Source: Prevotella sp.
GTDB lineage: Bacteria; Bacteroidota; Bacteroidia; Bacteroidales; Dysgonomonadaceae
DNA length: 45,437 bases
NCBI GenBank assembly: GCA_031273295.1
Contig: JAISSD010000172.1
Coordinates: 1 to 45,437 of the forward strand
Direction of reading: 5' to 3'
Shown: piece by piece, positions 2,552 through 43,215 of the stretch
How positions within the stretch are numbered: position 1 is the stretch's first letter
Layout of the letters: each line of letters starts with the position of its first letter
Translations under genes and position numbers: made by a program
Notes under the pieces: generated by a model
Database searches by the model: none
What the model saw: only the letters and a program-made list of their open reading frames with translations
What the model was told of the DNA's origin: nothing

Positions 2552-3511
2552 TTATCCTTGTGCGGATAACAATTCTTTGACGCAAATGTTCAGACTGTCT
2601 TCCCATTTGGGAATAGCAATATTGAATGTCGCCTTTATTTTAGTCTTGTCCAATACATTGTATTTAGGCCTTGCGGCTTTGACCGGATATTGGTCTGTAG
2701 CGACCGGGTTTACTTTGCAGGTCGTTATTCCGGCATATTTATGTATGGCCAGCGTGAAATCGTACCATGTGCAGGTTCCTTCGTTCGAATAGTGATAGAT
2801 ACCCGGTTTGAAACTGCCGGCTTCGCTGTGGTCAAGTATTTTTATGATTGCATCGGCCAAATCGGTGGCGTTTGTCGGGGTTCCTGTTTGGTCGGCGACA
2901 ACATGGAGGGTCTCGCGCTCTTTGCCGTATTTTATCATTGTTTTCACAAAATTATTTCCAAATATGGAATATAGCCATGCTGTGCGGATAATGATGCTGT
3001 CGGGGCATGTTTTTATCAGGGCCGCTTCGCCTTCTTGCTTCGATTTCCCGTATACAGACAGCGGATTCACGTCATCCGTTTCCATGTAAGGTTTCGACGC
3101 GGCGCCATCATATACATAGTCTGTGGATATATGAATTATTTTAGCGCGGTTGTTTGCGGCTGCAATTCCCAAATTGGCAACGGCGTCGCGATTGATCTTG
3201 TAACATGCCTCCACATCGTCTTCGGCCCTGTCCACTGCTGTGTAGGCGGCGCAATTGACAATATACCCGATATTGTTTTCTTTTATAAAATTTTCGACAG
3301 CTTGCGGGTCTGTAATGTCAAGCTCGGCAATGTCGGTAAAAAAGAAGCGGAAGTTGTTTTCGTGCATGGCGGATATGCGCCTGATTTCACTTCCCAATTG
3401 CCCGTTTGAACCTGTTATGAGGATATTTTTTTGCGTTAATTCAAACAGGAATATATTTTTTGCTGTTTCATTCTGCCAATCCGCCGGTTTGTTTCCTGAA
3501 AAAAAAGCCAT
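2552..3511 (-). CDS. rfbD: dTDP-4-dehydrorhamnose reductase
   Basis: This extended short-chain dehydrogenase makes dTDP-L-rhamnose for surface polysaccharide, using NAD(P)H. The Rossmann motif NILITGSNGQLGSE lies at about residues 29-42. The active-site serine/tyrosine/lysine pattern is visible as HISTDYVYDG and YGKSKQEGE. The C-terminal part matches the RmlD substrate-binding domain. The protein is 319 residues, about 27 longer at the N-terminus than typical RmlD. No ATG sits directly before the Rossmann strand (the codon there is TTA), so the extended start at 3511 is the best available. The extension may be real or may reflect a non-ATG start. It lies 83 bp downstream of fabD on the same strand and may be co-transcribed with it. 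Confidence 0.9.
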   Translation of the reverse strand: MAFFSGNKPADWQNETAKNIFLFELTQKNILITGSNGQLGSEIRRISAMHENNFRFFFTDIAELDITDPQAVENFIKENNIGYIVNCAAYTAVDRAEDDVEACYKINRDAVANLGIAAANNRAKIIHISTDYVYDGAASKPYMETDDVNPLSVYGKSKQEGEAALIKTCPDSIIIRTAWLYSIFGNNFVKTMIKYGKERETLHVVADQTGTPTNATDLADAIIKILDHSEAGSFKPGIYHYSNEGTCTWYDFTLAIHKYAGITTCKVNPVATDQYPVKAARPKYNVLDKTKIKATFNIAIPKWEDSLNICVKELLSAQG

Positions 3512-18225: not shown

Positions 18226-18248
18226 TATTATCAAAAAACAGATATGTT

Positions 18249-27200: not shown

Positions 27201-28082
27201 GTGCAAGCGGCTCTGGCACAACAGGGACGCAAGACTATAAAGGCTTCGCTGGTGGACGGGCTTAAATATTTTGCGAGCGAATTCTCTCCCGACAGTCCTT
27301 TCAATTTATGGGATGGATTCGAGGTAGACCGTAGCACGAACAGTCTGGGATTTGATTACAAGGGATATGCGCAGAGCGCTGCTCCTACAATGATAAGTCC
27401 GCTTGCGGATGTAGTGTTGAACCGGGATTTTGCGGACAGGAAAGTACACAACGAGCCTTATGTGAAGTCGAAGGAAGGCGCGGTTCCCCATACAACAATG
27501 GGCACAATGAATGTAAGTCCGGCGGCTCAATGGTTTACCGATCATGTCTGGAAACTTGCAGGGGGCCGTCCCGACCTTGAAGCCGTGTCCAATACGGACG
27601 GGTCGCCTATAGGCGGACTGGCTAATGTGAATCCGTCCGATATAGAGCATATTGTGACTGGTTATGTTCCGGGCATTGGCAAGTTTTTGATAGACCTTGC
27701 AGGGTCGGCCATAGCGGTTACGGAGGGTAAGTTTGACGTGTCGAACATGGTAATGGCGCGTGTATTTGTCAAGCCTTACAGGGAGGACAAAGCCTTCTAT
27801 AACGCCTATTACAATCTGAAAGGAAAGGCAAAGGCATACAAAAACATGCTGGACGCTTACGAAAAGGCGGAAAAGAGTGTGGATAACAGTGAATTGAGCG
27901 AATATGCCTCGAAAGCTCTGGACAGGATATACAAAAGCAGGGGTACAAAAGAATCGGAGGTTCTGGATCTTTACCTTGAAGCTGACCGGTTGCTGAAAGA
28001 TATTGACAAAAAAGGGGAGGCTGTATCGAAAGAAGACATAAAGGCCATGGATGCGATGATCATTAAATGGAACAGGAAATAA
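18249..28082 (+). CDS. Giant polyvalent protein: two ART-like modules, zincin peptidase, LPD domains
   Basis: About 3277 residues, starting at the ATG at 18249 (MPIYVVNGRKANVRDVAKFL); an upstream TTG is less likely. Visible parts: residues 400-600, a domain with SFGHGAASAFIENQSEVLGE; about 790-905, small beta domains; about 1094-1176, an LPD-type domain (GGQMAMYHIEAGAHKFADFA); 1207-1236, EVKAQ repeats; about 1243-1411, a first ADP-ribosyltransferase-like module (ELYHGSPEGK, GIGFYTTES); 1857-1861, HEFGH in PIHEFGHLWN, an HExxH zincin site; about 2110-2236, a second ART-like module with His (VVAHSS), Tyr (GAGYYF) and Glu (NQEWVAFSPSQIKSATD) in order; about 2255-3277, a long C-terminal LPD region. 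This matches the described class of phage 'polyvalent proteins', thought to be packed in the virion, injected with DNA and to act on host defences. It ends 20 bp before the portal gene. Confidence 0.85.
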   Translation: MPIYVVNGRKANVRDVAKFLKLYPNAQPLDSQPTGGAPSDSVPYLPEAQKSQRPAPAPPAVRAPAVRVPEVTHPADMFNPEKLGFSNEVIDVALPNDYSKHKDDLLTDREIYEHNVRNLADGVVKEKDPIDLFGAQLNLYKSNPRYKTGNTSTDYSKLPMIAKEYLKKNKVTVEEPIYSGGEVRMRTVKKNTPEQIEAVKDFIANSEMGVQYMNSHQNVIKELNKAIDPLIKQGEDIIHKEATEAINRHEKRAMTDLYGPAIPYFGEKYTLASKAVSLLKNAKSLLSAEKEGGGFWKGLKPNLQEVEEFLSMSEFLGDLRLNDVISKYEKNPESLTAEENLAIQAKFIADQIMAGVDPGNWYNIGSTTKKSLPFIRDFLLTAPLGGEVSGFAKAGASKLATKAGASLLSRMDNDLLYAIARKTVNKNTVSIVRKAGKVGIDMSVRPAVQSMFSPSSYAMAFEEMQGQAYDKDADGNIKFGNRKSFGHGAASAFIENQSEVLGEVVINKILQKFKIPVPKVFDNNFTRRAGIQGPFVEFTEEKYADLANVVRGEQTIEGFFDPRQNLETFGAVAVMQIPFSTVSTLGYMTGKIGDAQAKRSLKMAYEAARSNLFQYFGNEGGEVAVKNYENTVHAMYKSGNAKKAESELKKELVSIMNEDAISDNAKRAMIEYISVYFAYYGMDRGRLDRIRERQRRAADIISKNADASGRVMTARTKLFDGEEINIKADNIVLNEDGTINRDKSSGIIIYADPVDGTPKQLSINDILEITSVDNADDLKKMADAAIQDETEKADAVDEAPVFNIGDNAIVTINGVDLPVIVTGQTEGGYIVQDAIDGAVYNVGALDVKAAPEAKDPYVGQSVNTDYNGSAVKIDVTGRQGDFYTIDVTDSDGNVSSHTIAAEELPALFPAVDSETSGIEGADAVSLKRKEGESEGSASGEQSNLTDSGQIPKDEKGNMQFELVPVETTVRALKEVYSDVAKVLAVVNAYTSKIQEQLKEAKAPEITGDIREDVANQQAFNQNMEKLGKSLEYWQGVKNAVEAETRQTDNGQQKEEIPQPATLTETEVDVVEPEAGTATGPAVETESKEVEADKAVYGAANKIISTERYDELRKQMRGKMNNMNSGFDPELFIIGGQMAMYHIEAGAHKFADFAERMIESFGDGVRPYLKSFYEQARFAEEMKVYENKIDAYDTVKGFDVDGFKSKTQEVKAQEVKAQEVKAQDVKAQDVKAQEVKARPSVFDASSYEGAELYHGSPEGKLKFIDPYTHTRNWKEGIGFYTTESSEMAKGYAEGRTAKGERKGKASETGAVTSVAFPSGVKILDMEAPADMEMWNDVAERLDVMPPKSAKSNMDAYGQLIAEYNEETDTGEGQYEVEDVLREVYGYDASTHIEGKRKGTPHRVFIWKNDSKLPGIKESQEVREKVTESQEKSTESEKKSTESQGKVKEGERATIRFFNGQAVTGDVVSRKDGKISVKDGSGFIYSVPESRIIDTGVRKQVGKGKFTPIAREALEKIVKLLKKTGMARNVFIDEESIRNYEERLQSVLERKQEISHEKQKGIAIDALRAAEKTGYIDTGKLDEEGRKIVLVPKYTVKWFYGEDNPDIDYFDSMDEAFEDLKHPGSFDEVSAYFVPYKEADVYFKVARLDEDGDVEETNDKLDFNDALDKGFLPEIFNGLRSKWGDTFLDNRTFENPVESSRELLDEVYYNINNDIIDKYEGYRIGTIHTGKYRSLDIYDSNDNLVDVIQLRIADHPYNPANNDTDARSGKFISVEVFEKDPTRGRFNGRYSLQFNSNSEYDEIVEAVNERIREIIDDNMDSYEAKEMRTRDGGRILGLVTEDGDVYIDPSRMNANTPIHEFGHLWNTFIYENFPELWEAGKKPVIGSTYWNEVINDAGYSYLLKGTSKEKVTESVRTGESIDEATDYAIKRVMDESLAHFIGDNGEAEWHARHDLGTWARMKAWLHDVWNAIGKRLGLKPGVNLENMTLKDFADMAVKDLLGGKNLYKKYGVTEKGKWGGQSRENRAGERQADQSKYDFDVEGITDESAVEMSRIKSEAVANGTFMKAPNGKKTNLNERQWLQTRTKSFMNWFGDWLNDPENASKVVDENGEPKVVAHSSNKEFTIFRNKQENDSGWLGAGYYFFGDRSMDGQYGKNVMETFLNVRDPYYAVNEDQERLMELNDNSESEEFTNNLKEEGFDGVFFNGNLNQEWVAFSPSQIKSATDNNGNFDERSDDIRFHLEAGEEESALEKTVSNIPEPPVFTKKDTLADIMARHKQFVEETQTFKEAFDELVKKSALEEWRDNRVNEFQDDAKPLERFLKAIEKMGGKLYMAIDPYNDYFRSKGRAKRALDDYERNYINPLAGYLNDIVNGKRLDVIDNIVWKIGTNKKKGESLDNYDKISVYLQAKDMVESEELGLVPRGAKGFEKSLGFAGSAEKFRLAPRDYIDMFEDMLGMDTIDELWKLVNRATGFALDYQLKHGYTDQDTYDKYRGRKYYVPERGWRERDMGKDQKYVKDAGRFNNNPYNAALVKAKGRESLAGDPLAFIKSIAQSSILSVEKNRTKAKFLDFALKNQDIGRKTGAFTIKKLWYVKTDEKNEEGLNLYRESSVPPDSKMIEADKALRGQIAELRKSLKTAKTEQDRDAIQNDINSLSGQIRIAGRVNEDLVTQRTSDEKRQHQVKAVKDGVEYVIELSDAEAANVLNRNAGKAEFSGQKGITVVTKTMSSLMTQYNPEFALRNAMRDAGSSIIYSHAEFGNAYTGRYIKNIGLSQRSVWEYVLANNFKNKDSFDTKTGKMLEEFFEDGAATGYSYMKDIDHLRDDMRKLVDPNMWQKAGTAAFDNTIGVLGNVFGALTEASELTFRFATYKTSRESGYTREEAATHAKEVTVNFDRSGSNRFFRSFFAFFNPAIQGSSKYLKAAGKSREIRVLSALYVAMGYLNTLLQPDDPDDERSWGEYDRMQNLVLGSVKLALPQTFRAFHGIGVQAALAQQGRKTIKASLVDGLKYFASEFSPDSPFNLWDGFEVDRSTNSLGFDYKGYAQSAAPTMISPLADVVLNRDFADRKVHNEPYVKSKEGAVPHTTMGTMNVSPAAQWFTDHVWKLAGGRPDLEAVSNTDGSPIGGLANVNPSDIEHIVTGYVPGIGKFLIDLAGSAIAVTEGKFDVSNMVMARVFVKPYREDKAFYNAYYNLKGKAKAYKNMLDAYEKAEKSVDNSELSEYASKALDRIYKSRGTKESEVLDLYLEADRLLKDIDKKGEAVSKEDIKAMDAMIIKWNRK
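21868..21956 (+). repeat. 15-bp tandem repeat encoding EVKAQ/DVKAQ
   Basis: Six units of about 15 bp (GTCAAGGCGCAGGAA and variants) encode a charged pentapeptide linker just before the first ART-like module of the giant protein. A second, imperfect repeat region (TESQEK/STESE, about 22490-22590) follows the module, so the ART module is framed by flexible repeats. Confidence 0.9.
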
Positions 28083-28102: not shown

Positions 28103-30106
28103 ATGACAGTGGTGAATCATAAGATTTTCAATAAAAAGCGGCTTGGCATAAAGCCGGACAAGCGCTATGAAGTAATGGACAGCGTTCGTTTTTCGTCTGC
28201 AAGGGACGTGTTGGACGAATGTGCGGCCTACTGGTATGACTTGCGGGAATTCAGGTACAAGCGCAAGCGGTGCGGGCGTTACGTGTATGGCAAGCAGTGG
28301 GAGGACGTTATTCCCGACCCGGACAATCCGGGGAGGTTTATCACGGAGCGCCAGTCTATCATGCGTCAGGGAAAAACGCCTTTGCAGAACAACATGATAC
28401 GGCGGTTTTTAAACTCTATCGTAGGTTCGTTCAGGACAAACCAGACGGAGCCTGTCTGCTCGGTGCGGGACAGCGACGAGGCTACCATAGGGGAGATGAT
28501 GACAATCGCGCTGCAGGCTTGCGGGCAGCTTAACCAGACGTCTGAACTGGATGCGACAAATTTGTTTGAATACGCGATATCCGCGAGTGCGTTTTACAAG
28601 GTTAAATACGACATAGTACCCACTAGGGACACGCTTGACGGTATTGTGCTTGTGAACAATCCTTCGCGGATGTTCTGGAATGCCGACATGGAAGATCCGC
28701 GGGGTTGGGATTTGCGCCATATAGGAGAAATCCATGATTTGCGGCTGGCTGACGTGTTGCGGGCGTTTGCGAAAAACAGGAAAGATGCGGAATATATACG
28801 CAGTTTGTACCATGGTATAAACACGCGCATATCTTCTTCGTATGGCAACATGACTACCAAACGGATAGACAATCTGGACTTTTACATTCCGCAGGATGAC
28901 TACACATGCCGGGTGATAGAGAGCTGGCGTTATGAAAGCAAGCAAGCGCTCAGGTGCGTGGACGAGGCCGAAGGATCGCTGTACTGGGCAGACCTGAACG
29001 AGGAGAGGGGTATAATAGCCGAAAACGAGCGCCGTATAAAGGAGGCCGCCTTGCAGGGGGTGGCTATGGACGATGCGCTGCTTATAAAATACAAATGGGC
29101 AGTACACCAGTACTGGTATTACAGGTTTTTCACGCCTTACGGGGATGTGATGGCAGAGGGTGAATCGCCCTACTGGCACAAGGGGCATCCGTATTCGTTT
29201 AACTTTTATTCAACCTTTGACGGGGAGCCACATTCGTTTGTGGAGGACTTGATAGACCCGCAGCGGATGTTGAACAGGATGTATATTTTGCAGGATTTTA
29301 TAATCAGCTCCGGGGCCAAAAACACGCTGGTAGTTGATGCTGACGCTTTGGACGGGAAATCGCCGGAAGAAATCGCCGAGGCATATGTGAAGGTAGGTTC
29401 GGTGATCGTATTGAAAACCAAGCCGGGGGTAAAGGTAAACGAAGTGATGCAGCAATTGCAGACGAACAACAACAATATAGGCACCTACGAGATGATCAAC
29501 CTGATGATGTCTTTCATGAACGACATATCGGGGGTTCACGGGGCATTAAGAGGGGAGGATCCCAAGTCGGGCACTGCGGCCAGCCTGTACGCGCAGGAGG
29601 CTCAAAACGCGGCTACCAACATCATACATCTTGTAAACTCCTTTAACAGCCTTCGTAGCGATCGCGATATAAAACTGATGAAGGTTTTACAGCAGTATTA
29701 CGATTCGCGCAAATTTATAAATACGGCGGGTTCATACTATTCAAAGGAATCGAAATACTATAATCCGGAACGGGTTCAGAATTCGGAAATGGATATATCG
29801 CTTTCACAAAGTACGTCTACTGTGGCTTACCGGTCGGTGATGGATACATTTTTGCTGGACATGTTCAAGGGTGGGGCCATTACTTTGAAGATGATGCTGG
29901 AAAATTCAAATCTTCCGTTCAAGGACAGATTGCTTCAATCGGTAGAATCGGCTGAACAGTCTGCGGAGGAAGGACAGATGAACGGTTTCACCCCGGAAAT
30001 GATGCAGCAGGTGCAAGGCGGTTCAAATCCGGAGGCAATGGCCATGCTGAATCAAAATTTCAGGGGGCAGGAACAGGAAAATAATGAAATAAAGCAGGTT
30101 AATTGA
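28103..30106 (+). CDS. Portal protein (P22-like)
   Basis: A 667-residue portal protein; twelve copies form the ring at one head vertex through which DNA is packaged and ejected. The N-terminus (ARDVLDECAAYWYDLREFRYKRKRCGRY) and the PLQNNMIRRFLNSIVGSFRTN segment (about 94-114) are the usual beginning of P22-type portals, with the later WxxD and EDLIDPQRMLNRMYILQDFI (about 370-390) wing/stem region. The C-terminal ~60 residues are Gln/Met-rich and probably form the barrel. It ends the first rightward block and is followed by a hairpin terminator. A 20-bp gap from the giant gene implies one transcript. Confidence 0.88.
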   Translation: MTVVNHKIFNKKRLGIKPDKRYEVMDSVRFSSARDVLDECAAYWYDLREFRYKRKRCGRYVYGKQWEDVIPDPDNPGRFITERQSIMRQGKTPLQNNMIRRFLNSIVGSFRTNQTEPVCSVRDSDEATIGEMMTIALQACGQLNQTSELDATNLFEYAISASAFYKVKYDIVPTRDTLDGIVLVNNPSRMFWNADMEDPRGWDLRHIGEIHDLRLADVLRAFAKNRKDAEYIRSLYHGINTRISSSYGNMTTKRIDNLDFYIPQDDYTCRVIESWRYESKQALRCVDEAEGSLYWADLNEERGIIAENERRIKEAALQGVAMDDALLIKYKWAVHQYWYYRFFTPYGDVMAEGESPYWHKGHPYSFNFYSTFDGEPHSFVEDLIDPQRMLNRMYILQDFIISSGAKNTLVVDADALDGKSPEEIAEAYVKVGSVIVLKTKPGVKVNEVMQQLQTNNNNIGTYEMINLMMSFMNDISGVHGALRGEDPKSGTAASLYAQEAQNAATNIIHLVNSFNSLRSDRDIKLMKVLQQYYDSRKFINTAGSYYSKESKYYNPERVQNSEMDISLSQSTSTVAYRSVMDTFLLDMFKGGAITLKMMLENSNLPFKDRLLQSVESAEQSAEEGQMNGFTPEMMQQVQGGSNPEAMAMLNQNFRGQEQENNEIKQVN

Positions 30107-30741: not shown

Positions 30742-32835
30742 TTAAAATGTTGATTCGTTTCTTGTTTGTTGCTTTTTACGGGTTTTGGGTTCGTGCGGTA
30801 TAAAGGCTTCGGGTATTGGCAGATACTTGAAGTCGTAGCATACGTACACGCCAATTGCGGTAGCCATAAGAATGTCGTCGTGACATCCGTCGATAGCTCC
30901 CAGTTTGCCGTTTTGCTTGATTTCGTACTGGTCGAGTTCGTCGCAGCAAGCGGCGTCCCTTTCGTAATACCCTTCTTCGCGCAGCATATTGACCATATTG
31001 TCGATTACCAGCGTTTTTGAAGATCCATTCATGTGAAAACCCCATTTTGGCGGTAAATTTTCTTTTATCCGTTGCGCTGAATTCCGGCAATACATGTTGT
31101 CGTACACGCCTCCCAGTTCGTCGAGAATATATTCAAAGTGATCGCCTTCGGTTTCTTCCGTTTCGAGGGTGTTGGATTCTATAACCAGCAGGGCATTGTC
31201 GTATATGGAAGCTATCTGCGCCGCCTTCCATGCCAGCAAGTCGTGATCGATGTGTCCGCGCCATTGGGCAACCTTTTCTGGAACGCCGCCGGGTTCGGTC
31301 ATGTATTTTCGGTCGAATACGGAAATTACAGACCAGTCGGCTTCATCGGAGCGGCCTCCTATATCCACGCTTGCCACATAGCGGCGCTTTATATTTTCGA
31401 TGGTCGGTGGCGACCATATTTTTAGCAGGTTATCATCCTTTCGTGGAATGCCCTCAAGTTTTTTCAGGAATGATTTTTTCAGGAATTCCTTTTGTTTGTC
31501 GCGAGTGTCGCAATCTTTCAGAATCAGAGGCGATTCTACCGAAGCATAGAACAAAGGCTCCTTGTTGAATTTGCGCATGTTTTGCACCATGTAAATATCG
31601 AATTTCCTTTTTCCGGAGCTTTGGAAGGCTTCGATGTCGTCGGAAGGATATTCCTGTCTCATGCTCCACTCGTCGGGATATCCGTTTGACATTTGACGGT
31701 ACCAGTTTATCTGTTCGAGTGTCGCGCCCTTATCCCAGAGGTTGTATTCGTAATCGTTCATCGAGTTTATAAAATCGATGAAATTGTCAATTTTGACGGA
31801 ATAGCTTTCGATTTCGAACCATGCAATAAATACGGGGGTCATGTTTCCCTTTCCGGATTTTGATCTTAGCCATTCGCGGTGAAAGAGGTTTCCCACTCCT
31901 TTGGCGGTACTCTCGTATACTATCATTGAATCGGCTACCAGCGGAATCCCCGACGTGACGGAATTCAATATGTCTGCGGGCGTTTTTCCTTTTGTTTCTT
32001 TCCATATACCGATTTCGGTACAGTGGGCCATAACGGCCTCTTCGCCGCGTACACCGTCGGGTTTTTCGGCGCTACCGATTGTTATACGGCAGTCGGGGCC
32101 TGCGATGATGCTTGTTTTGGATGATTTTTCGTAAGGGCGCATTGACAGCGTCTTGCTTGCGCCGTCTGCTATCAGTTCGGGCGGGATATACTTTAACATT
32201 TTGGCGTACATGCCTTTCACGATTCTGGCCGTGTTTTCGATATGGGCGCAAATCACGCTATTCCACTGGCGGTGGTGAAACAGTTGCAGCCATCCCATAT
32301 ATAATTGTACAAGCGTGGAGCCTCCCCACTGCCTTGCCTTTAGCAGAATAATACGTATGGGTACTCCTTTTAGCCGCAGGTATTCGAGGACTTTCAGCAG
32401 TTTTCTTTGTCCGCGGTTCAGAATAAAAGGTATGTCCATTTCAAGAATAACATCCTGCCCTGTAAATGGATCTTTTTTTGGCTTCGGTTTTATTTTGAAG
32501 TAAGACGCAGCGACATATTCAAAATCGGTTCTGACCCTGATTCGTTCTACTTCCAGAATTATTTTTTTTACGGTTTCATTTGTGGGGGGTATATTTAATT
32601 TTTGGAGGTAAGCGTTTATAGAGCCTTCGCTTTTCAGGGCCTTTATCAGGGGGTGCGACATCATTTCGCAAGGCGCAAGGAAGTACGCAATGGGCAGTCC
32701 GTCTATCTTCAGGGGCTCCCTTTTGACAATATCGGACCCGCTACCAAGAAAAGGGTTGTATTGCTTTTCTTCCTTTTGCAGCCTGGCGTTCCGGCTTTTA
32801 TTCTCTTCCCTTATCTGCGAGGCTGTCTGTTTCAT
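30742..32835 (-). CDS. terL: Terminase large subunit
   Basis: A 697-residue DNA-packaging motor. The ATPase half shows the Walker A variant KARQWGGST at residues 166-174. A glycine-linked acidic region around RGEEAVMAHCTEIGIWKE corresponds to the Walker B/coupling zone. The C-terminal RNase H-like nuclease shows SVDIGGRSDEADW (about 486-498, first acidic residue), LLVIESNTLE (second) and DGCHDDILMATA (about 648-659, last). All expected acids are present. The gene is oriented against portal, scaffold and capsid, which is unusual. It overlaps the rhomboid gene by 38 bp and is followed by a small gene after four bases, so this is a tight leftward operon ending at the hairpin at 30212. Confidence 0.93.
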   Translation of the reverse strand: MKQTASQIREENKSRNARLQKEEKQYNPFLGSGSDIVKREPLKIDGLPIAYFLAPCEMMSHPLIKALKSEGSINAYLQKLNIPPTNETVKKIILEVERIRVRTDFEYVAASYFKIKPKPKKDPFTGQDVILEMDIPFILNRGQRKLLKVLEYLRLKGVPIRIILLKARQWGGSTLVQLYMGWLQLFHHRQWNSVICAHIENTARIVKGMYAKMLKYIPPELIADGASKTLSMRPYEKSSKTSIIAGPDCRITIGSAEKPDGVRGEEAVMAHCTEIGIWKETKGKTPADILNSVTSGIPLVADSMIVYESTAKGVGNLFHREWLRSKSGKGNMTPVFIAWFEIESYSVKIDNFIDFINSMNDYEYNLWDKGATLEQINWYRQMSNGYPDEWSMRQEYPSDDIEAFQSSGKRKFDIYMVQNMRKFNKEPLFYASVESPLILKDCDTRDKQKEFLKKSFLKKLEGIPRKDDNLLKIWSPPTIENIKRRYVASVDIGGRSDEADWSVISVFDRKYMTEPGGVPEKVAQWRGHIDHDLLAWKAAQIASIYDNALLVIESNTLETEETEGDHFEYILDELGGVYDNMYCRNSAQRIKENLPPKWGFHMNGSSKTLVIDNMVNMLREEGYYERDAACCDELDQYEIKQNGKLGAIDGCHDDILMATAIGVYVCYDFKYLPIPEAFIPHEPKTRKKQQTRNESTF

Positions 32836-34636: not shown

Positions 34637-36058
34637 ATGAAACAGATTTTTAAAAATTATTTTGGGAAGGGCGGGTTGATAATCCTGTTTCTTTCACTGG
34701 TATGCGCAATAGCCGGTGTTACCGATGTTGGCGCGGTGAATTCGGCGGAGGCGGTGGCCGGTATATTCACGCCTAACCAGACAGGTCCCGATCCGAGTTC
34801 TCCGGGGGCCGAAAACCAGGGGAAACATGTTGCCGGGGATGTGAGCATCGATACCGGCAAGAATGTGCAGACGGAGCTATTCAAGCCTTACTATGACGAT
34901 GAGATTGTCAAGGTAAGGCCGGACAAGGCGATACTGGATACGATGATGAGGCACCTGACTCCGCGGAACATGTCGTCTATCGACGCGAAATGGGGTTCGG
35001 TGGACATCAAGCCTTTCGAGACGTTTGTAAAGACGGCTTACGAGGAGGACACAACCAGTTCGACGGCGACATTGACGGTAGACAATCCTATCATATTTGC
35101 CAAGTCAAGTACCATATTAGTGAAAGGCGTCTACGGGTTTGACGAATCGGGCACGGTTCAAAGCACGAAGGATTACCTTCAATTGCGTGTAAAGAGTATT
35201 GCCGGGCAGAATATCATCGTTTACGCGACCAACGGGGGGGCATTGACCTCTACGGCATTGCGTCCGAGAACCCAGAAATACGTTCCGTCGATAGACGCCA
35301 ATACGGTTCTTTACCGCCTTGGCAGGGCAGCGACGGAGTTTGACGTGAAAACGCCTCCTACATCTTCCTATCCTGTTATCGACAATAACTATGCGCAGAC
35401 ATTCATGTGCCAGATAGATATTTCGAAATGGTACCAGAAGCAGGACAAGATACTGGACTGGGAGAAAGAGGACATGAACGAGGCGGCCATATATGAATGG
35501 CGCATGGAAATGGAAGGCTCCATTATGTACGGCAAGAAGGGTATGACATACGACGATGACCAGAACATCGATGTTTATACATGTAACGGCATAACCAAAT
35601 ACATGTTTAAAGAATATGAATATACTTCGTTCACGAAGGAAGATTTCATTGACATGACGGAATACATCTTTACCAAAAACAGCGGTTCGAAGAAAAGGAT
35701 ACTGTTTGCGGGTTCGAAATTCATATCCAACATAAGCAAGATAGACTGGACGTTGAACAAGGAGATAACTACGGGCATAGCGGTTGAATGGGGCATCAAG
35801 TGGAATACGATAGAAACGAACTTCGGTACGCTGTATCTGATACATCACGAACTGCTGGATCTGTACGGAGACGCGGATAACGCCTACGTTATAGACCCTG
35901 ACTACCTGTACAAATACATCTGGGAGGCAAGGAGTTCCAAATCTTACGACCAGGAAGCTCTTGGGGTAAAGAAATCGGATACCATTGTGAACTCGGAAAG
36001 CTTCTGTCCGGGTCTGGGTTATCCTAGCTGCCACTGCAAGATCATGAAGGCGGCCTGA
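34637..36058 (+). CDS. Major capsid protein (with hydrophobic N-terminus)
   Basis: A 473-residue protein that fits the SU10-like/DUF5309-like HK97-fold capsid group of Bacteroidales phages: it follows the scaffold and carries segments such as RMEMEGSIMYGKKG and KKRILFAGSKFISNISK in the second half. The assignment rests on context and general resemblance. Residues 12-29 (GGLIILFLSLVCAIAGVT) after a basic start look like a signal peptide or membrane anchor, which is atypical for a cytoplasmic capsid protein. The C-terminus is cysteine-rich (CPGLGYPSCHC), perhaps a metal or disulphide site. A stable hairpin follows the stop. Confidence 0.8.
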   Translation: MKQIFKNYFGKGGLIILFLSLVCAIAGVTDVGAVNSAEAVAGIFTPNQTGPDPSSPGAENQGKHVAGDVSIDTGKNVQTELFKPYYDDEIVKVRPDKAILDTMMRHLTPRNMSSIDAKWGSVDIKPFETFVKTAYEEDTTSSTATLTVDNPIIFAKSSTILVKGVYGFDESGTVQSTKDYLQLRVKSIAGQNIIVYATNGGALTSTALRPRTQKYVPSIDANTVLYRLGRAATEFDVKTPPTSSYPVIDNNYAQTFMCQIDISKWYQKQDKILDWEKEDMNEAAIYEWRMEMEGSIMYGKKGMTYDDDQNIDVYTCNGITKYMFKEYEYTSFTKEDFIDMTEYIFTKNSGSKKRILFAGSKFISNISKIDWTLNKEITTGIAVEWGIKWNTIETNFGTLYLIHHELLDLYGDADNAYVIDPDYLYKYIWEARSSKSYDQEALGVKKSDTIVNSESFCPGLGYPSCHCKIMKAA

Positions 36059-36131: not shown

Positions 36132-36626
36132 ATGTCGAAAATAAACGTTGTGATATTCAGATTGAAGGGGCTTATGAGCTTAAGCCAGAAGGTTGTTCTG
36201 AACGGTAAAGAAGTCCGGGTGGAATACAGCGGCGGGGGTACTAACGGGAATACCATTATAGGTGGCAGGTACATATCCAGGGATGCCGGCATAATAGAGG
36301 CTATCAAGGCAAGTCAAAGATTCAAGGACGGTCAAATATACATTGAAAGCAGTACATACGAAGACGTCAAGGAATATAAATTGCCGGATGAAACCGCCGG
36401 CTTGAAAGATGCGATAGCGCTTGGGACGTCAAGTCCGGATGAAACCGCCGGCAATCCCGACCTGCTATCCGAGCTTGTGGCCAACCAGCAGCAAGCGCGG
36501 GAGTTCATGACTGAAAAAGGCATTGGCGCGGAGGCTTTGAACAAAATACTGTCGGCGACCGACCTTGTTTCGTTTGCAAAAGAAAAGGGATTTACATTTC
36601 CAAACTGGCGGGCGTTCAATGAATAA
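36132..36626 (+). CDS. Hypothetical head protein
   Basis: A 164-residue protein between the capsid gene and a connector. The N-terminal ~75 residues are beta-rich (GKEVRVEYSGGGTNGNTIIGG) and the C-terminal ~50 are helical. The linker holds PDETAG twice, encoded by an exact 18-bp direct repeat (near 36384 and 36438). The end FPNWRAFNE is Trp-containing and compact. Head decoration or completion is plausible by position only. The stop TAA overlaps the next ATG by one base (TAATG). Confidence 0.55.
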   Translation: MSKINVVIFRLKGLMSLSQKVVLNGKEVRVEYSGGGTNGNTIIGGRYISRDAGIIEAIKASQRFKDGQIYIESSTYEDVKEYKLPDETAGLKDAIALGTSSPDETAGNPDLLSELVANQQQAREFMTEKGIGAEALNKILSATDLVSFAKEKGFTFPNWRAFNE

Positions 36627-37366
36627 TGACAATAAGGGAATTCATATACAAGGTCAAGGTAAAATTACAGGAGCTAACCCCGTATGGTTCGGGGTTGGGC
36701 GTCCTTGACCCCGACACGTCCAGAATAACTCCGTTGACCGAGGGGCTTGTGGTTCTTGACCCGAAAAGGCTTGATAAACCGGGAGAAACTTACATCAAGG
36801 AATGTATCGAGGAGGCGTTTATGTATTTGAGAAACATATCGCCGGCGGATTTGTTGACGGCGGTGGAAATGGACAGGATGTCGACGGTTGCGATACCGAA
36901 TCAGGACGGGAGCGGTCATATATTCCTTCCCGATGATTTTTACTCGTTGAAGATATTCAAGATGATTGGATGGGAGAGGCCTGTGACGGGTAGCATTTCC
37001 ATGGACAACCCGAAATATACCGAGCAGTTCAATCCTTATTTGCGCGGGGGCGTATCGACGCCTGTTTGTGCGGTAGTGAAAACGGACAAGGGTATGAAGC
37101 TGGAATACTATTCGCTGCCGAAAAATTTCAAAAGGCATGAAATTGAATACGGTTATTACTTTCCAAAGCTGAAAATAGACATTCACGATCCGGACGCTTC
37201 GATTTTTGACAACATGGATGAAAGGTTGCTGTATGTGCTGGTTTACCTGACGGCGGCCAGAGTTCAATTCATTTACGAACAAAGCGATCTGTACGAGAAG
37301 TCAAAACAGCTGGCTCTGGAAGATTTGCAAATCATAAAAGCTGCAATGAATAATGAGCGAACATAA
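36626..37366 (+). CDS. Putative head-tail connector (adaptor) protein
   Basis: A 246-residue soluble protein. The N-terminal helices (TIREFIYKVKVKLQEL, ETYIKECIEEAFMYLRNI), the central beta part (IFLPDDFYSLKIFKMIGW) and the C-terminal helix (YEKSKQLALEDLQIIKAAMN) resemble ring-forming adaptor proteins that attach below the portal. Position after the capsid gene and before tail genes agrees. It is coupled to both neighbours: 1-bp overlap upstream and 14-bp overlap downstream. Confidence 0.6.
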   Translation: MTIREFIYKVKVKLQELTPYGSGLGVLDPDTSRITPLTEGLVVLDPKRLDKPGETYIKECIEEAFMYLRNISPADLLTAVEMDRMSTVAIPNQDGSGHIFLPDDFYSLKIFKMIGWERPVTGSISMDNPKYTEQFNPYLRGGVSTPVCAVVKTDKGMKLEYYSLPKNFKRHEIEYGYYFPKLKIDIHDPDASIFDNMDERLLYVLVYLTAARVQFIYEQSDLYEKSKQLALEDLQIIKAAMNNERT

Positions 37367-38069
37367 TAAAATAAATAAACAGGATCGTGTAAGATTTGAA
37401 GATTACAAGGGGGCCTTCAATTCGATACAGGACATATACACGAAGTATCCCAAGGGATATTACGGGTGGTGGGCGTATATTGATCCTGCAGGGGAGACTC
37501 CTGCGGTGAACACAAGGTATTTTGTTTATTGGAGTTCCATAAATAACGCATGGCAGTCGATGTTTGACTTGCTGGATATAGAGGAAAGGTTACGTATCGT
37601 AAACGAACGTCTGGACACTGTGAACGAGCGTTTGGACACTGTGAACGAACGTCTGGACACTGTGAACGAACGTTTGTCGGCCATAGACGAAATCAACGGC
37701 TTCAATCTGGGTTGCCAGACGGTGGATACAGTGTCGGGCATTATACCTATGGGTACTACTACGGCAACCATATCAGCCGGGGAGGCATTGTCTTTTGCGG
37801 AGACAGAGCGGTTCAAACCGGGTTATGTGGCATCTATCCGCGTAAGGAACACATCGGCGGGTATTGTGTTTGTCACGCTTCCGCAGACGGCTGAATACGA
37901 GGTAGACAAGTGGTATCAGGCGGCGGTTTATCCGGGCATGGTAACGGAGATAATTGTACGGTGCATCGCTCCCGGCAAATATGCGATAACATACATTGTC
38001 AACAAGAAATCGGAGGTAGTGCTTTCGCCTCCTGCGGCTACATTCGATGCTGCGGGCAACACGATGTAA
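37353..38069 (+). CDS. Tail/fibre protein with heptad repeats and half a BACON strand
   Basis: A 238-residue protein. Residues about 1-75 contain Trp/Tyr-rich WWAYIDP, as in tail attachment domains. Residues about 78-112 are four RLDTVNE-type heptads, a trimeric coiled coil. Residues about 115-220 form a beta domain. The last residues, VVLSPPAATFDAAGNTM, look like the first strand of a BACON (bacteroidetes-associated carbohydrate-binding often N-terminal) domain that stops abruptly. The rest of a BACON domain begins at the next gene's start. The 14-bp overlap with the connector gene implies co-translation. Confidence 0.65.
   Translation: MSEHNKINKQDRVRFEDYKGAFNSIQDIYTKYPKGYYGWWAYIDPAGETPAVNTRYFVYWSSINNAWQSMFDLLDIEERLRIVNERLDTVNERLDTVNERLDTVNERLSAIDEINGFNLGCQTVDTVSGIIPMGTTTATISAGEALSFAETERFKPGYVASIRVRNTSAGIVFVTLPQTAEYEVDKWYQAAVYPGMVTEIIVRCIAPGKYAITYIVNKKSEVVLSPPAATFDAAGNTM
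37584..37680 (+). repeat. 21-bp tandem repeat encoding RLDTVNE heptads
   Basis: Near-identical 21-bp units (CGTCTGGACACTGTGAACGA plus one base, with silent changes) encode consecutive coiled-coil heptads in the tail protein. The number of heptads sets the length of the rod and could vary by slippage. Confidence 0.88.
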
Positions 38070-38103
38070 ACGAATAGAGTTTTAATCATTAAAATATTTA
38101 AAC

Positions 38104-38400
38104 ATGGCAACATTAAAAACAATCGCCGTAACGGGAATAACGGCCGGCGTAGCGGTAACTGCCGTATCCGATCAGGGTTGGTGTACTGTAGCAGGCGGAT
38201 CGTTTGTCGGGAACGGCAACTTTACAATCCAGTGCGGAGCATACTCTTCTACGGATTCGGATCGTAGCGCAAATGTAACTGTAACGTCGTCGGACGGTGC
38301 GACGGCTGCTATTGTAACGGTATCGCAATTGCGTCAGTCGGTTATATTGTTAACACCCAATGCCGTCACGTTTGACGCTGCGGGCAACGTATTGACTTAA
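38104..38400 (+). CDS. Single BACON-domain protein, domain out of register
   Basis: A 98-residue protein. It begins in the second strand of a BACON domain (MATLKTIAVTG, then DQGWCTV with the conserved Trp), runs through SDRSANVTVTSSDG and AAIVTVSQ (the usual domain end), and then adds ILLTPNAVTFDAAGNVLT, which is the first strand of the next BACON domain. The stop then comes, and the following gene supplies that domain's remainder. The start is the ATG at 38104, with an ATTAAAATATTTAAAC leader like other phage genes. It is in the same frame as the following gene, separated by TAA and four sense codons (ESRI). Confidence 0.7.
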   Translation: MATLKTIAVTGITAGVAVTAVSDQGWCTVAGGSFVGNGNFTIQCGAYSSTDSDRSANVTVTSSDGATAAIVTVSQLRQSVILLTPNAVTFDAAGNVLT

Positions 38401-38412
38401 GAATCAAGAATA

Positions 38413-39486
38413 ATGGCGACCAAACAGAAGGTAACAGTATCCGGTGTGGAGCCGGGTGTAAGCTGGCAGGCGATATCGAACCAGACATGGCTAAAGGTAA
38501 CGGATATTGTGTCTACTGCCGATGAAGATTCGTTTAACGTGTCGGTTGATGTAAATGCGTCGGATTCTCGCGCGGGTATAGTGACCGTTATCCCGTCGGA
38601 CAACGGGAGCAACGGTACGGTACAGGTATCGCAGCAAGGGGATTCGGTGGCAATACTGAACATAAACCCTGTTTCGACGACTATTCCGGCAGCGGGCGGC
38701 CAGTTTTCCCTTGTGGTACAATGCAATACCAACTGGGATACAGTCTATGATGTGTCTGTCATATCACTTAGTCCGGCCAGCGGAACGGGTAACGGGGTCA
38801 TCAATGTCACGGTATTGCCCAACACGGGTTCTGATTCAAGGGATCTTACGGTTACAGTATTTACCGATTCGCTTATGGCGCAGTGCGAAATCAGTCAGGA
38901 TGCGCCTGCGCATAGCATATCCGTAGACCCCGCTCTGCTTCAACCTGACGGATGGGGAGGCTCCTACAATACATACCTGGACAGCGATACATCGTGGAAT
39001 GTACAAAGCAAGGATGAATGGCTGGACACTACACCGCAATACAGCGGTGGAAGTATAGACGTGATGATCCATGTAGAGCCAAATCCATCGGTAATGGATT
39101 CACGTAGCGGGCAGATTGTGTTTCAAACCGCCGACGGTTCGGCTACTGCAACCATGACTGTTGACCAGATGCCTCACGTGCCGGATGTTAACATTAAAAA
39201 CTACAGGGCGGACGCGGTTCGCTATGTATTGATGGCGGCCGGTTACACTCCGGCGGGCGATTATTACGGTTATAGTTCGGTAATTTTACAAAACGGAGAA
39301 TCGAACGATCATGCATGGAGCGGCTTTAGCAGCGATTTTCCAGTGAATGACACTAACGCCAACACGATTTACAGGGGCGTTGGCGATACAGTATATGCGT
39401 GGACGTGGGCAGACGGCGATATATGGACGGAGTTGACGTCATTCGTGCTAGCCAGCATGGCGGTACAGAATGTAGAGATCTATTAG
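38413..39486 (+). CDS. Multi-BACON tail protein
   Basis: A 357-residue protein. It starts in the second strand of a BACON domain (MATKQKVTVSG, NQTWLKV). It continues through VQVSQQG (about residue 75), a second BACON (about 80-165, NPVSTTIPAAGGQFSLVV to CEISQDA), a third more diverged one (about 167-260, ending MTVDQM), and a ~95-residue C-terminal domain rich in Tyr/Asn (YYGYSSVILQNGE). BACON domains in Bacteroidales phages are thought to bind glycans or mucin. Its first domain lacks the first strand, found instead at the end of the previous gene. TAG stop at 39484. Confidence 0.75.
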   Translation: MATKQKVTVSGVEPGVSWQAISNQTWLKVTDIVSTADEDSFNVSVDVNASDSRAGIVTVIPSDNGSNGTVQVSQQGDSVAILNINPVSTTIPAAGGQFSLVVQCNTNWDTVYDVSVISLSPASGTGNGVINVTVLPNTGSDSRDLTVTVFTDSLMAQCEISQDAPAHSISVDPALLQPDGWGGSYNTYLDSDTSWNVQSKDEWLDTTPQYSGGSIDVMIHVEPNPSVMDSRSGQIVFQTADGSATATMTVDQMPHVPDVNIKNYRADAVRYVLMAAGYTPAGDYYGYSSVILQNGESNDHAWSGFSSDFPVNDTNANTIYRGVGDTVYAWTWADGDIWTELTSFVLASMAVQNVEIY

Positions 39487-39498
39487 GGTCAAAAAAAA

Positions 39499-39529
39499 CG
39501 GGGGCGCTTCCATTCGGGGGCGCTTCCAT
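39499..39529. repeat. Duplicated 15-bp GC-rich unit
   Basis: CGGGGGCGCTTCCAT occurs at 39499-39513 and 39515-39529, with period 16, in the 78-bp gap before the fibre gene. It is a direct repeat, not a hairpin. It might be a binding site or a duplication scar. Confidence 0.85.
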
Positions 39530-39564: not shown

Positions 39565-42500
39565 ATGTTAACAATTACAACCAGCGAGAATCAGGTATTC
39601 CTGCAGGCGGGCAGCAAGGATAAAATTCCTTTTTACAAGGGTCAGTTGCGTTACAGAATATCTGCGGACAGGCTGTCGATGTACATATGGCCTCAAGAGA
39701 CGTCGTTTATGGACGCGAAATGGGCTGACGGCATAACGTTTGACGGGCAGGCCATGACCAGAGAGAACGCCTTTGATTTACTGGAAGAGATAGGCATAAA
39801 GGGGGGCGGGGGGGCATCGGATATACCGGACGGTTACTGGTTTGCGGATGACGGGGCCAGGGACAGTTATTTTGCGGCTCGTCCCGACGAATTAAAGGAC
39901 GGGTTGACAATAGCTGTGGGTTCGGGTGCAACGCCTGACGATTACACCTTTGAGCAGTATAGTGTAGCGGCTGGCGAATGGCGCGATGCTACGCGCATAT
40001 TCAGAGGCCCGCGCGGGGAGAAAGGCGACCAGGGCATACAGGGTATACAGGGTGAGAAAGGCGACAAAGGGGATACCGGGGACAAGGGCGATACCGGGGA
40101 ACGCGGCGTTCAGGGCCTGAAAGGGAACGACGGGGCTCCGGGCGCGACGGGAGAAAAAGGCGATAAAGGCGACAAGGGCGATACCGGAGAGAAAGGCGAC
40201 AAGGGCGAAGATGCGGCCAACCTGAATTACACGGGTGAATGGATTAGCGGGACTACATACAACGAAGATGCGCCGTCAAGGTATGACCAGTGTACATATA
40301 ACGGTAATGCCTATGTAGCTATTGCGGCCTCCGGGTTCATTTCCACGACAGACCCTGAAACGGATACGGTGAACTGGGCGTTTTACGTGGCCAAGGGCGC
40401 TCCGGGAGAAAAAGGCGACAAGGGCGACAAAGGGGATACCGGGGAGAAAGGCGACAAGGGGGATGACGGAAGTATAGACGTCGATTCCTTTATGGAAATG
40501 ACGTCGGATTCGGATACGGTAACTCGCGGGATAGACGGAACAACCGGCAAGGTAATATTTCAGGCGATAGCCGGTACGGGCGATGTGGAATCGGTTAACG
40601 GATTAACGGGCGATGTAGTTCTGAACGGGGACAACATCACAACGGACGGGGAGGAAACGCTGAACGGGAGGTTTTCCGATATTGACGGGAAGATATCCGG
40701 GAAGGTGGACAAAGTGATAGACAATGACGTATTTACCCGTACAATATACGACAACGGGTCAATTAAAACAATATACAAGGCGGATAATTCGTATGATTAT
40801 TTCTTTTCCGAAAGCGACGGGGGCGGTTATATGTCGTATGATGCGACAACCGACACGTTATCGTTTGGCGGAGCAAACCGGGACAGTACGGATCCGCTCG
40901 TGTACGAGATATATGTAAAAAACAAAACGACAGGACTGGGCAACCGGTTGATGTGGCGATGGTCGGGAGACAGCGCGGGCGTTGGAGAAATAAAGACATA
41001 TTATACTTCGGGCAAAACGGACGGCTCGGCTACGGCCGATGACGAGGTGGCCGTCAAAAAACAGGTTGACGCCAAACAGGATACCTTGTCGGCCGGTGCG
41101 GGCATAAGCATCACAGGCAATACGATAACGGCAAGCAATACCGGGTTGAAAGCCACTATATTTTACGATGACGTAACTTCGAGATGGAACATCCAGACGG
41201 GAGGGGTTCATCCGGAGTATTTCGCCTACCTGTGCGACACGGATTATACCGTTCTGGACAAACAGGGCGGCGCGGTAGACGCCGGAGGCACATACACCTA
41301 CTTCCTGATTCCTGAAAATCCGGAAGGTGTTTTCTTTGTTGTTTCGGGCACGGAGTTTAACATCGGGGATACCCTTGTCATAGACTCTGACGACTGGATA
41401 GACGGCAAGCCGAATTATTACACGAAATCAGCCATTGACGAGCTGCTGTCAACGAAAACGGATATATCGGGCAGCGTCAAGGATGTTACAAGCGGGCAAA
41501 ATATCACGGTGGTAGCCACCGTCAATGCGGACGGTTCGAAATCATACCGGATTGCGGGAACTGCCGGAACGGTGAATTATTACTCGTCGACCGATGCTCC
41601 TACCGTCCAGAAAGTGGGCGACCCGGCGAGCGTCGGGGGGGCCACCCTTACGCCTATAGGTTCGGCTCCGATGAGTCCGAGTGTCGGCGACCGTGTGATT
41701 TGCGATAACAGCCTGCAATTCATGATCGATACGATAACGGCAAATTACGTATTGGGAGCGACAACGCAGCTGCCGCCCACATCGGCGTCGTGGAATACGC
41801 TTGGCGGTTCGCTGAACAACAATCAGTTTGTCAAGGCGAAAACACAGGACGGCACGAACGAGTTGTCTGTTTTGTACGCGGATCCGGATGATACGGTTCA
41901 GGTAGGCGGCACGGCGTGGAACGGGTTGAATCTCAAAACGGGAGCGACACAAAGGGTTACGCATAACGGCGCGCATCAACTGGCGTGGGTGGAAGAGGTA
42001 ACGGCGGAACAGGACAGGGCTGAACAGGCCGAAAGCGATTTGCAGACCAATATCAACCAGGTTGAAGATATAGCCAACAGCAAATGCGCCATAGACGACA
42101 CCAACGCCACGGCTAGCACAACCTATTCGAGCAACAAGATACTGGCGGTATTTGGCGGGGCGATCATCAACCTGCCTAACAGGGAACTTGTTTCACAGCT
42201 GCCGGATTATACGCTCATTACGCAGCCGACCCTTTGTTTTGTCGGGGAGACGCACACGCAATGGTTCTGTTCGGCTCAGGGCGATGACTGGGTGAACACG
42301 GGTGGCACATTCATAACAGTCTCCCAGCTTGAAGATTATCTGAATACGAACGGCTACCTGAAACAAACGGACGTTGTGGACAATTACAACTCGGAGAGCG
42401 CCGTCAGGCCGTTATCCGCCAGGATAGGCAAGGTGTTGAAGGACTTGACAGACACGGCGCTCACGGCAATAACGACTTTGCAGGGCTATTTTTCGGAAGG

Positions 42501-43215
42501 GAAAGCCAAACAGGCGCTGGTAGCGGACAAACTCTCGGCTGAAAGGACTATTTCAATTACCACAACCGGTGCGGCTGCCGGTAGCGGGTCGGCGATATTC
42601 GATGGCAGCGGCAACGCAGCGATTACATTTGTTACCACCGCTCCGGCAACACCTGCTCCGACGCCTAAAATACCATTCAGTACAAGTGTTGTCGCAACCT
42701 CGTCAAGCACCGAATATATTAACTGCGGATATTACCAGTGGTATCTTTCGTCTGCCAGCTGGAACAAGGGCAGGGCGGTTCAATGCGTGGGCAATGTGGT
42801 GCCGATGCTGGCAATGGACTACGGATGGAATACAGCCAATTGCGAGGTGTCCATATCTTGCGGTTACAATACTATTGGGAGCGCGTATGCATACTTCAAG
42901 GGTGGCAACTATGTGCCTTATCTGGGATTGAAGCTGGTGGTTAATGAAAGCGGCAACGCCATAAACGATCCAGTCAACAGCGACAATCCACAGATACCGG
43001 CATGGAGCGCCAGATTATTTCTTGTAGTTGGCGTGCCGGGAGGAAGCTATACCATACGGAAGCAAGTGGCAATGTCGGCATACCAGGCGTATTATATCCC
43101 TCATAGCGGAAGTATTACACTGGCCGACCAAAGTATGAGTTCCAAGAATCTGGGAACGGCAAAGCCATCCGGATTGACGGATATTACAATTCGCCGGCTA
43201 GACCAAATATCGTAA
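39565..43215 (+). CDS. Collagen-like tail fibre/receptor-binding protein
   Basis: A 1216-residue fibre. Residues 1-145 form an attachment domain. A Gly-X-Y collagen-like rod lies at about 146-217 (GEKGDKGDTGDKGDTGE pattern), a ~60-residue Trp/Tyr-rich module resembling small carbohydrate-binding modules at about 218-277 (YTGEWISGTTYNEDA), and a second Gly-X-Y stretch at about 276-302. The shaft continues with motifs such as VESVNGLTGDVVL, NYYTKSAIDELL and heptads near residue 810. The C-terminal ~200 residues (GYYQWYLSSASWNKG) are probably the receptor-binding tip. It follows the BACON genes and precedes lysis genes, the usual fibre position. Confidence 0.85.
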   Translation: MLTITTSENQVFLQAGSKDKIPFYKGQLRYRISADRLSMYIWPQETSFMDAKWADGITFDGQAMTRENAFDLLEEIGIKGGGGASDIPDGYWFADDGARDSYFAARPDELKDGLTIAVGSGATPDDYTFEQYSVAAGEWRDATRIFRGPRGEKGDQGIQGIQGEKGDKGDTGDKGDTGERGVQGLKGNDGAPGATGEKGDKGDKGDTGEKGDKGEDAANLNYTGEWISGTTYNEDAPSRYDQCTYNGNAYVAIAASGFISTTDPETDTVNWAFYVAKGAPGEKGDKGDKGDTGEKGDKGDDGSIDVDSFMEMTSDSDTVTRGIDGTTGKVIFQAIAGTGDVESVNGLTGDVVLNGDNITTDGEETLNGRFSDIDGKISGKVDKVIDNDVFTRTIYDNGSIKTIYKADNSYDYFFSESDGGGYMSYDATTDTLSFGGANRDSTDPLVYEIYVKNKTTGLGNRLMWRWSGDSAGVGEIKTYYTSGKTDGSATADDEVAVKKQVDAKQDTLSAGAGISITGNTITASNTGLKATIFYDDVTSRWNIQTGGVHPEYFAYLCDTDYTVLDKQGGAVDAGGTYTYFLIPENPEGVFFVVSGTEFNIGDTLVIDSDDWIDGKPNYYTKSAIDELLSTKTDISGSVKDVTSGQNITVVATVNADGSKSYRIAGTAGTVNYYSSTDAPTVQKVGDPASVGGATLTPIGSAPMSPSVGDRVICDNSLQFMIDTITANYVLGATTQLPPTSASWNTLGGSLNNNQFVKAKTQDGTNELSVLYADPDDTVQVGGTAWNGLNLKTGATQRVTHNGAHQLAWVEEVTAEQDRAEQAESDLQTNINQVEDIANSKCAIDDTNATASTTYSSNKILAVFGGAIINLPNRELVSQLPDYTLITQPTLCFVGETHTQWFCSAQGDDWVNTGGTFITVSQLEDYLNTNGYLKQTDVVDNYNSESAVRPLSARIGKVLKDLTDTALTAITTLQGYFSEGKAKQALVADKLSAERTISITTTGAAAGSGSAIFDGSGNAAITFVTTAPATPAPTPKIPFSTSVVATSSSTEYINCGYYQWYLSSASWNKGRAVQCVGNVVPMLAMDYGWNTANCEVSISCGYNTIGSAYAYFKGGNYVPYLGLKLVVNESGNAINDPVNSDNPQIPAWSARLFLVVGVPGGSYTIRKQVAMSAYQAYYIPHSGSITLADQSMSSKNLGTAKPSGLTDITIRRLDQIS

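What the first reader, a model, noticed from the sequence alone, without database searches (positions are those of the whole stretch)
37995..38500. BACON domains split across consecutive gene borders at the same internal position
The gene ending at 38069 stops after VLSPPAATFDAAGN(TM), and the gene ending at 38400 stops after LLTPNAVTFDAAGN(VLT). Both endings are the first strand of a BACON domain. Each next gene starts with MAT plus the second strand and the conserved Trp. The break falls at the same turn twice and the restarts are alike (MATLK, MATKQ), so random decay is unlikely. I infer modular tail proteins in which one subunit completes the fold of the next, similar in principle to donor-strand complementation in pili. 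The second junction is in one frame (TAA then ESRI-M), so stop readthrough is an alternative.
Basis: partly seen in the sequence, partly recalled or inferred. Interest (0 to 1): 0.75.

Follow-up and report, generated by a model that had tools for sequence, protein, structure and literature searches.

The report
Phage fibre proteins sharing split domains
In a virus of a Bacteroides-type bacterium, neighbouring genes each seem to encode part of the same small protein fold, so the end of one protein probably plugs into the next and clips a fibre together, much as bacterial pili are assembled; this has not yet been tested in the laboratory.

Summary
In a Bacteroidota prophage, P1 (37353-38069) and P2 (38104-38400) end in a strand-A-like peptide of a BACON (Ig-like) domain; P2 and P3 (38413-39486) begin at strand B, with no upstream start that could add strand A. 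Two further prophage loci in one other genome of the genus show the same split: a P1 homologue ending NPVFTGFDKDGN*, then a gene starting MAKT[IL]TIAG. In one of them another gene lies between the halves, and at 3 of 4 junctions stops exclude readthrough or frameshift fusion. Of 182 BACON domains, 9 lack room for strand A: these 4, plus 3 cut by locus ends and 2 in interrupted frames. Tails and deficits balance: P1 to P2 to P3. The two window tails share 10 of 14 residues, 6 through synonymous codons. Most likely: donor-strand complementation between separate chains, joining a base (P1), link (P2) and tip (P3). It works like pilus donor-strand exchange but is not a pilus. New variant of a known kind.

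The parts
37353..38069 (+). P1 (238 aa): proposed base/donor. N-terminal domain shared with proteins at the same place in related prophages, coiled-coil-like stretch, C-terminal beta-rich domain (by inference), donor tail
   Evidence: ORF; N-terminal model built from six relatives, P1 not among them, E 1.9e-5 and 2.3e-6; coiled-coil Pfam matches about 72-115, all below cut-off; C-terminal domain aligned with homologues
38019..38060 (+). P1 donor strand VLSPPAATFDAAGN, followed by TM and the stop 38067-38069
   Evidence: strand-A matrix rank 5 of 2,234
38083..38085 (+). TAA in the P2 frame between P1 and P2; a slip out of the P1 frame cannot fuse P1 to P2
38104..38400 (+). P2 (98 aa): proposed link. 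One BACON domain without strand A plus a C-terminal donor tail
   Evidence: PF13004 E 4.6e-10; own model from position 37 of 104
38347..38388 (+). P2 donor strand LLTPNAVTFDAAGN, followed by VLT and the stop 38398-38400
   Evidence: rank 1 of 2,234
38413..39486 (+). P3 (357 aa): proposed tip. First BACON without strand A, two complete BACON domains, C-terminal part of about 100 aa without a Pfam match
   Evidence: PF13004 E 6.2e-18, 3 stretches; own model from 39, 3 and 6; C-terminal part
38413..38643 (+). P3 acceptor domain (BACON without strand A)
34637..36058 (+). Major capsid protein (context; used to find relatives)
   Evidence: SU10_MCP E 8.7e-29
39565..43215 (+). Collagen-like tail fibre protein downstream (context). 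A 199-aa gene with, by eye, a similar N-terminus lies between donor and acceptor in G020:C218
   Evidence: Collagen E 4.8e-14, tail fiber PHROGs; L030 4676-5275

Best explanation
P1, P2 and P3 are separate subunits of one virion appendage, most likely a tail fibre. The last 14 or so residues of P1 insert as strand A into the groove left in P2's BACON domain, and the last residues of P2 insert likewise into the first BACON of P3; the joints are non-covalent. P1 is donor only (base, bound to the virion by its N-terminal domain), P2 acceptor and donor (link), P3 acceptor only (tip). Shown: the anatomy, the recurrence, stops that exclude readthrough or frameshift fusion at 3 of 4 junctions, the one-to-one balance, and amino-acid conservation of the tails. 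Inferred: the docking, its order, and the place in the virion.
For: (1) P2 and P3 begin at strand B; the preceding proteins end with a strand-A-like peptide. (2) The same split is in two prophage loci of one other genome of the genus, whose P1 C-terminal domains match P1 at 32-34% identity. (3) In G020:C218 a 199-aa gene lies between donor and acceptor; the same leader precedes the acceptor in both G020 loci. (4) A P1 homologue in the window's own genome (G000:C267) has no tail (end score -1.1), and the BACON domains of the next gene lie well inside it. (5) P1 and P2 tails: 14 codons, 4 identical, 6 synonymous, 4 non-synonymous; the G020 tails: 18 codons, 17 identical, 1 synonymous. (6) The three distinct tails end in Gly-Asn; at the second position about half of the other domains have Gly (83 of 179) and Asn is not among the six commonest, as if no A-B turn were needed. 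(7) In the solved chain 8va4 the stretch that aligns with strand A of P3's second domain is in the same chain as the rest of the domain.
Against: The G020 tail fits the strand-A matrix only modestly (2.83, rank 65 of 2,234). The C123 P1 homologue and the C267 one do not appear among the matches of the N-terminal model, so the base role rests on P1 and the C218 homologue. Both G020 contigs end with the first BACON domain, so their acceptor genes are seen only in part. Only two genomes show the split: no further case among the matches listed in 150 relatives that were checked, nor among the matches at E <= 1e-8 in 395 class and E <= 1e-9 in 393 order genomes that were checked, nor in the viral contigs reached. 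By the short Pfam model the acceptor domains look nearly complete, so they might fold without strand A.
Confidence: 0.6

Rival explanations
1. Evolutionary leftovers: a longer fibre chain was broken into several genes at a recombination-prone BACON boundary; the tails do nothing and the acceptor domains fold without strand A.
For: Three related prophages (G167, G087, G187) have one chain of 1114-1270 aa with the same N-terminal domain at this place; the short Pfam model is nearly filled by P2.
Against: The tails are alike at protein level through synonymous changes and stop at the same place in two phage lineages. In the 13 oriented capsid-gene loci plus window searched, only the window and G020:C218 had BACON matches, so a simple fission of those long chains is not seen.
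Confidence: 0.17
2. Self-completion (circular permutation): P2's own C-terminal strand fills P2's own groove.
For: P2 has both a deficit and a tail.
Against: P1 has a tail but no BACON match, and P3 a deficit but no strand-A-like end (score -4.6); the G020 P1 tails would be unexplained too.
Confidence: 0.1
3. Stop-codon readthrough or frameshifting makes longer chains with complete BACON domains.
For: P2 and P3 are in one frame, with a single TAA between them.
Against: After the donor's stop and before the acceptor's ATG, the acceptor frame holds 1 stop at P1/P2, 3 at G020:C123 and 19 at G020:C218, where a whole gene intervenes. TAA is in general the least leaky stop (recalled).
Confidence: 0.05
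4. Assembly or sequencing artefact created the stops.
For: Draft genomes (G000 in 312 contigs; the G020 loci lie in contigs deposited as a MAG).
Against: Four junctions in two assemblies show the same border, with spacers of 34, 12, 73 and 812 bases and an ATG; a base error would not create these.
Confidence: 0.03

Closest known systems
Chaperone-usher pili and Bacteroidetes type V pili (donor-strand exchange; recalled)
   Same: An Ig-like subunit lacks one strand, which a neighbouring subunit supplies; base, link and tip kinds of subunit
   Different: Here the donor strand is C-terminal and would supply strand A of a BACON domain (in chaperone-usher pili an N-terminal extension takes the place of strand G; recalled). 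The genes lie in a phage structural cluster; no chaperone or usher was seen among the genes scanned
TasA biofilm fibres (donor-strand exchange outside pili; PMC9674648, search listing with title and start of abstract only)
   Same: Donor-strand assembly of a fibre that is not a pilus
   Different: A bacterial biofilm protein, not a three-protein phage appendage
BACON tandem-repeat proteins of crAss-like phages (PMC6949934, passages seen)
   Same: BACON domains near tail genes of gut phages, proposed for host binding
   Different: The passages seen describe repeats within ORFs and no domain split over two genes ('split' and 'adjacent gene' occur 0 times). The window's nearest named relatives by capsid protein are BF1-TP2, BKO1-TP3 and BS-TP4
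Long single-chain proteins of related prophages (G167, G087, G187)
   Same: Same place after the capsid gene; their N-termini are among the six used to build the N-terminal model that P1 then matched
   Different: One chain of 1114-1270 aa, without BACON matches, instead of several genes. The proteins at this place in BF1-TP2 and BKO1-TP3 were not matched by the N-terminal model

Membership tests
BACON domain (PF13004 / PF19190) | Sequence match above the family cut-off | tested here: met
   PF13004: P2 39.8 and P3 65.0 bits against 25. PF19190: P3 44.4 met, P2 20.4 not met
BACON domain (PF13004 / PF19190) | Strand A in the same chain, as in 173 of the 182 domains compared | tested here: not met
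   P2, P3 domain 1 and the two G020 acceptors have no room for it
Donor-strand-exchange pilus system | Subunit lacks one Ig strand and the neighbour supplies it | tested here: inconclusive
   Sequence anatomy fits; docking could not be tested
Donor-strand-exchange pilus system | Chaperone and usher, or lipoprotein export, of the subunits | tested here: inconclusive
   None seen among the window proteins scanned; not every gene of the window was scanned and no signal-peptide test was run
crAss-like phages (Crassvirales) | Nearest relatives by structural proteins are crAss-like | tested here: inconclusive
   Capsid protein matches SU10_MCP and 3 of 50,697 phage records, none named crAss, taxonomy given only as 'Viruses'; a distant relationship was not tested

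The most novel reading that the evidence does not exclude
P2 both accepts and donates the same kind of strand, so it could join to itself and form a chain of variable length between a virion-bound P1 and the tip P3: a phage fibre that polymerises by donor-strand exchange without chaperone or usher, with modules held by a common plug and socket.
Probability: 0.12. Interest if true: 0.85.

Novelty: new variant of a known kind. Interest (0 to 1): 0.58.

Why it matters
If true, it adds a way to build a tailed-phage fibre: separate gene products clipped together by donated Ig strands. Such a plug and socket would let phages of Bacteroidota exchange fibre modules as whole genes, and it can be tested with three small proteins. 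Six searches of the held full-text library listed no paper that, from its title and start of abstract, describes donor-strand assembly in a tailed-phage fibre or with a BACON domain; the listed papers were not read for this except passages of two, and most subscription journals are not held.

Tried and rejected
Relatives of P1, P2, the 36626-37366 protein and the capsid protein in viral contigs: none confirmed. The G020 P1 C-terminal domain in viral contigs: none; in genome contigs only the two loci already known. P1, P2, P3 and the G020 acceptor against phage records: only weak matches, or none. Acceptor profile A2 in viral contigs: 2 loci, BACON far inside a long frame. P1 C-terminal domain against solved structures: 0 matches; against Pfam: none. 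L064 and L103, two BACON frames interrupted within strand A, look like lipoprotein genes with a frame break and were set aside. Readthrough and frameshifting as the general explanation were rejected on the stops at the junctions. Dropped before the count of 182: 15 overlapping loci and identical domain copies. Of the matches listed (itself a capped list) 60 stretches were fetched, chosen by hand, besides the loci that the searches brought.

Full report
Context. The window is a whole contig (G000:C300) of a draft genome of 312 contigs. It holds a prophage beside chromosomal genes such as SecDF. Structural genes include a portal protein 28103-30106, a terminase on the other strand 30742-32835 and an SU10-type capsid protein 34637-36058. 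The capsid protein matches 3 of 50,697 phage records, Bacteroides phages BF1-TP2, BKO1-TP3 and BS-TP4, and 11 of 199 related genomes, the window's own included.

Observation. P1 (37353-38069) ends SEVVLSPPAATFDAAGNTM. P2 (38104-38400) starts MATLKTIAVTG and ends SVILLTPNAVTFDAAGNVLT. P3 (38413-39486) starts MATKQKVTVSG. P2 and P3 are BACON proteins. I built a 104-position model from 127 BACON domains that have at least 28 residues before the conserved core, a choice that favours complete domains. P2 and the first domain of P3 match it from 37 and 39, the other two P3 domains from 3 and 6. The frame of P2 opens 18 bases and that of P3 12 bases before the ATG, with no other ATG, GTG or TTG, so these genes have no room for strand A. 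By Pfam's short PF13004 model, however, P2 is nearly complete (5-60 of 61).

How unusual it is. Of 182 distinct BACON domains in the loci held then, 173 have room for strand A. The other 9 are P2, P3 domain 1, the two G020 acceptors, 3 domains cut by a locus end and 2 in interrupted frames. With a strand-A matrix from 127 strands that exclude the window and G020's L030/L031, P2's tail is 1st and P1's 5th of 2,234 frame ends; the G020 tail is only 65th. The tail-less P1 homologue of G000:C267 scores -1.1 and the end of P3 -4.6; the internal strands of P3 score 16.1 and 9.2.

Recurrence. In genome G020 (same genus; the same two contigs are public as a MAG named Prevotella sp.) two loci hold a P1 homologue that ends MMYIMNVNPVFTGFDKDGN*. 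A later gene starts MAKTITIAG or MAKTLTIAG, again at strand B. In C123 the spacer is 73 bases. In C218 it is 812 bases and holds a 199-aa gene, with the same leader before the acceptor. Both contigs stop with the first BACON and share their last 119 bases, probably an assembly break, and G020 showed no continuation. The C123 homologue has a different N-terminus that the N-terminal model does not list. In 101 family genomes the P1 C-terminal domain was found only in G000 and G020; in 393 order genomes only in G000, plus one weak match (G226, E 7.6e-4, not examined). Acceptor matches with E below 1e-30 in 150 relatives, 395 class and 393 order genomes were only those of G000 and, in the relatives, G020.

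Selection. P1 and P2 tails share 10 of 14 residues through 4 identical and 6 synonymous codons; TFDAAGN is the same with 3 synonymous changes. The two G020 tails differ by 1 synonymous change in 18 codons, while their 102-codon C-terminal domains, tail included, differ by 12 non-synonymous and 16 synonymous codons. This suggests that the tail is kept as protein; the samples are small and no formal test was made.

Mechanism. Donor without acceptor domain: P1. Acceptor and donor: P2. Acceptor without tail: P3. The numbers close for the chain P1-P2-P3. Self-filling leaves P1 and P3 unexplained. Fusion by readthrough is possible only at P2/P3; elsewhere the acceptor frame is closed. I therefore favour donor-strand complementation between separate chains. 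An N-terminal model from six relatives, three of them long single chains (1114, 1158 and 1270 aa), matches P1 with E 1.9e-5 and 2.3e-6, which suggests that P1 is the virion-bound base of a fibre; P3 would be the tip. These two points are inference, as is the docking.

What could not be done. By sequence, three solved chains match the acceptor profile (8va4, 3zmr, 9s8x); in 8va4 the stretch that aligns with strand A of P3 domain 2 lies in the same chain, just before the stretch that aligns with the acceptor profile.

Literature. PMC6949934 (passages) describes BACON tandem repeats in phage ORFs near tail genes. PMC13370021 (passages) describes BACON proteins of gut phages that bind epithelium. 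Searches combining donor strand or strand complementation with phage terms, BACON with phage and tail and BACON with donor-strand listed nothing on donor-strand assembly of tailed-phage fibres, judged from titles and starts of abstracts; PMC12207478, on a filamentous phage, holds the word donor-strand once and was not opened.

Verdict. Real, recurrent in two genomes, alike at protein level; mechanism likely but unproven; a new variant of donor-strand assembly.

Noticed in passing
37599-37682: Four tandem heptads VNERLDT (21 bases each) in the coiled-coil-like part of P1, perhaps a stalk of variable length.
   Followed up: no
39500-39529: GGGGGCGCTTCCAT twice, between P3 and the collagen-like fibre gene.
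   Followed up: no
18222-28082: Open frame of 3286 aa just before the portal gene; BKO1-TP3 and BS-TP4 have still longer genes before theirs, one annotated 'DarB-like antirestriction'.
   Followed up: no
L006 (G000:C267), reverse complement 805-1860 and 1865-3340: The same genome holds another locus with a tail-less P1 homologue, followed by a protein with repeated NGKLY-type motifs and BACON domains.
   Followed up: partly
L064 and L103: In two BACON lipoprotein-like genes the frame is interrupted within strand A; sequencing error or slippage, not examined further.
   Followed up: partly
L282, L290, L303, L307, L318, L355, L374, L392: Viral contigs in which a protein ending in FDA[QLK]GN plus a few residues is followed by one starting MA with a DG..L.FP motif; a recurring gene border met by the pattern scans, without BACON.
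   Followed up: no
L007 5128-7155, L008 4811-6925: Genes annotated 'tail spike protein' in BF1-TP2 and BKO1-TP3 whose place, and for BF1-TP2 the record's own structure match, point to the large terminase.
   Followed up: no
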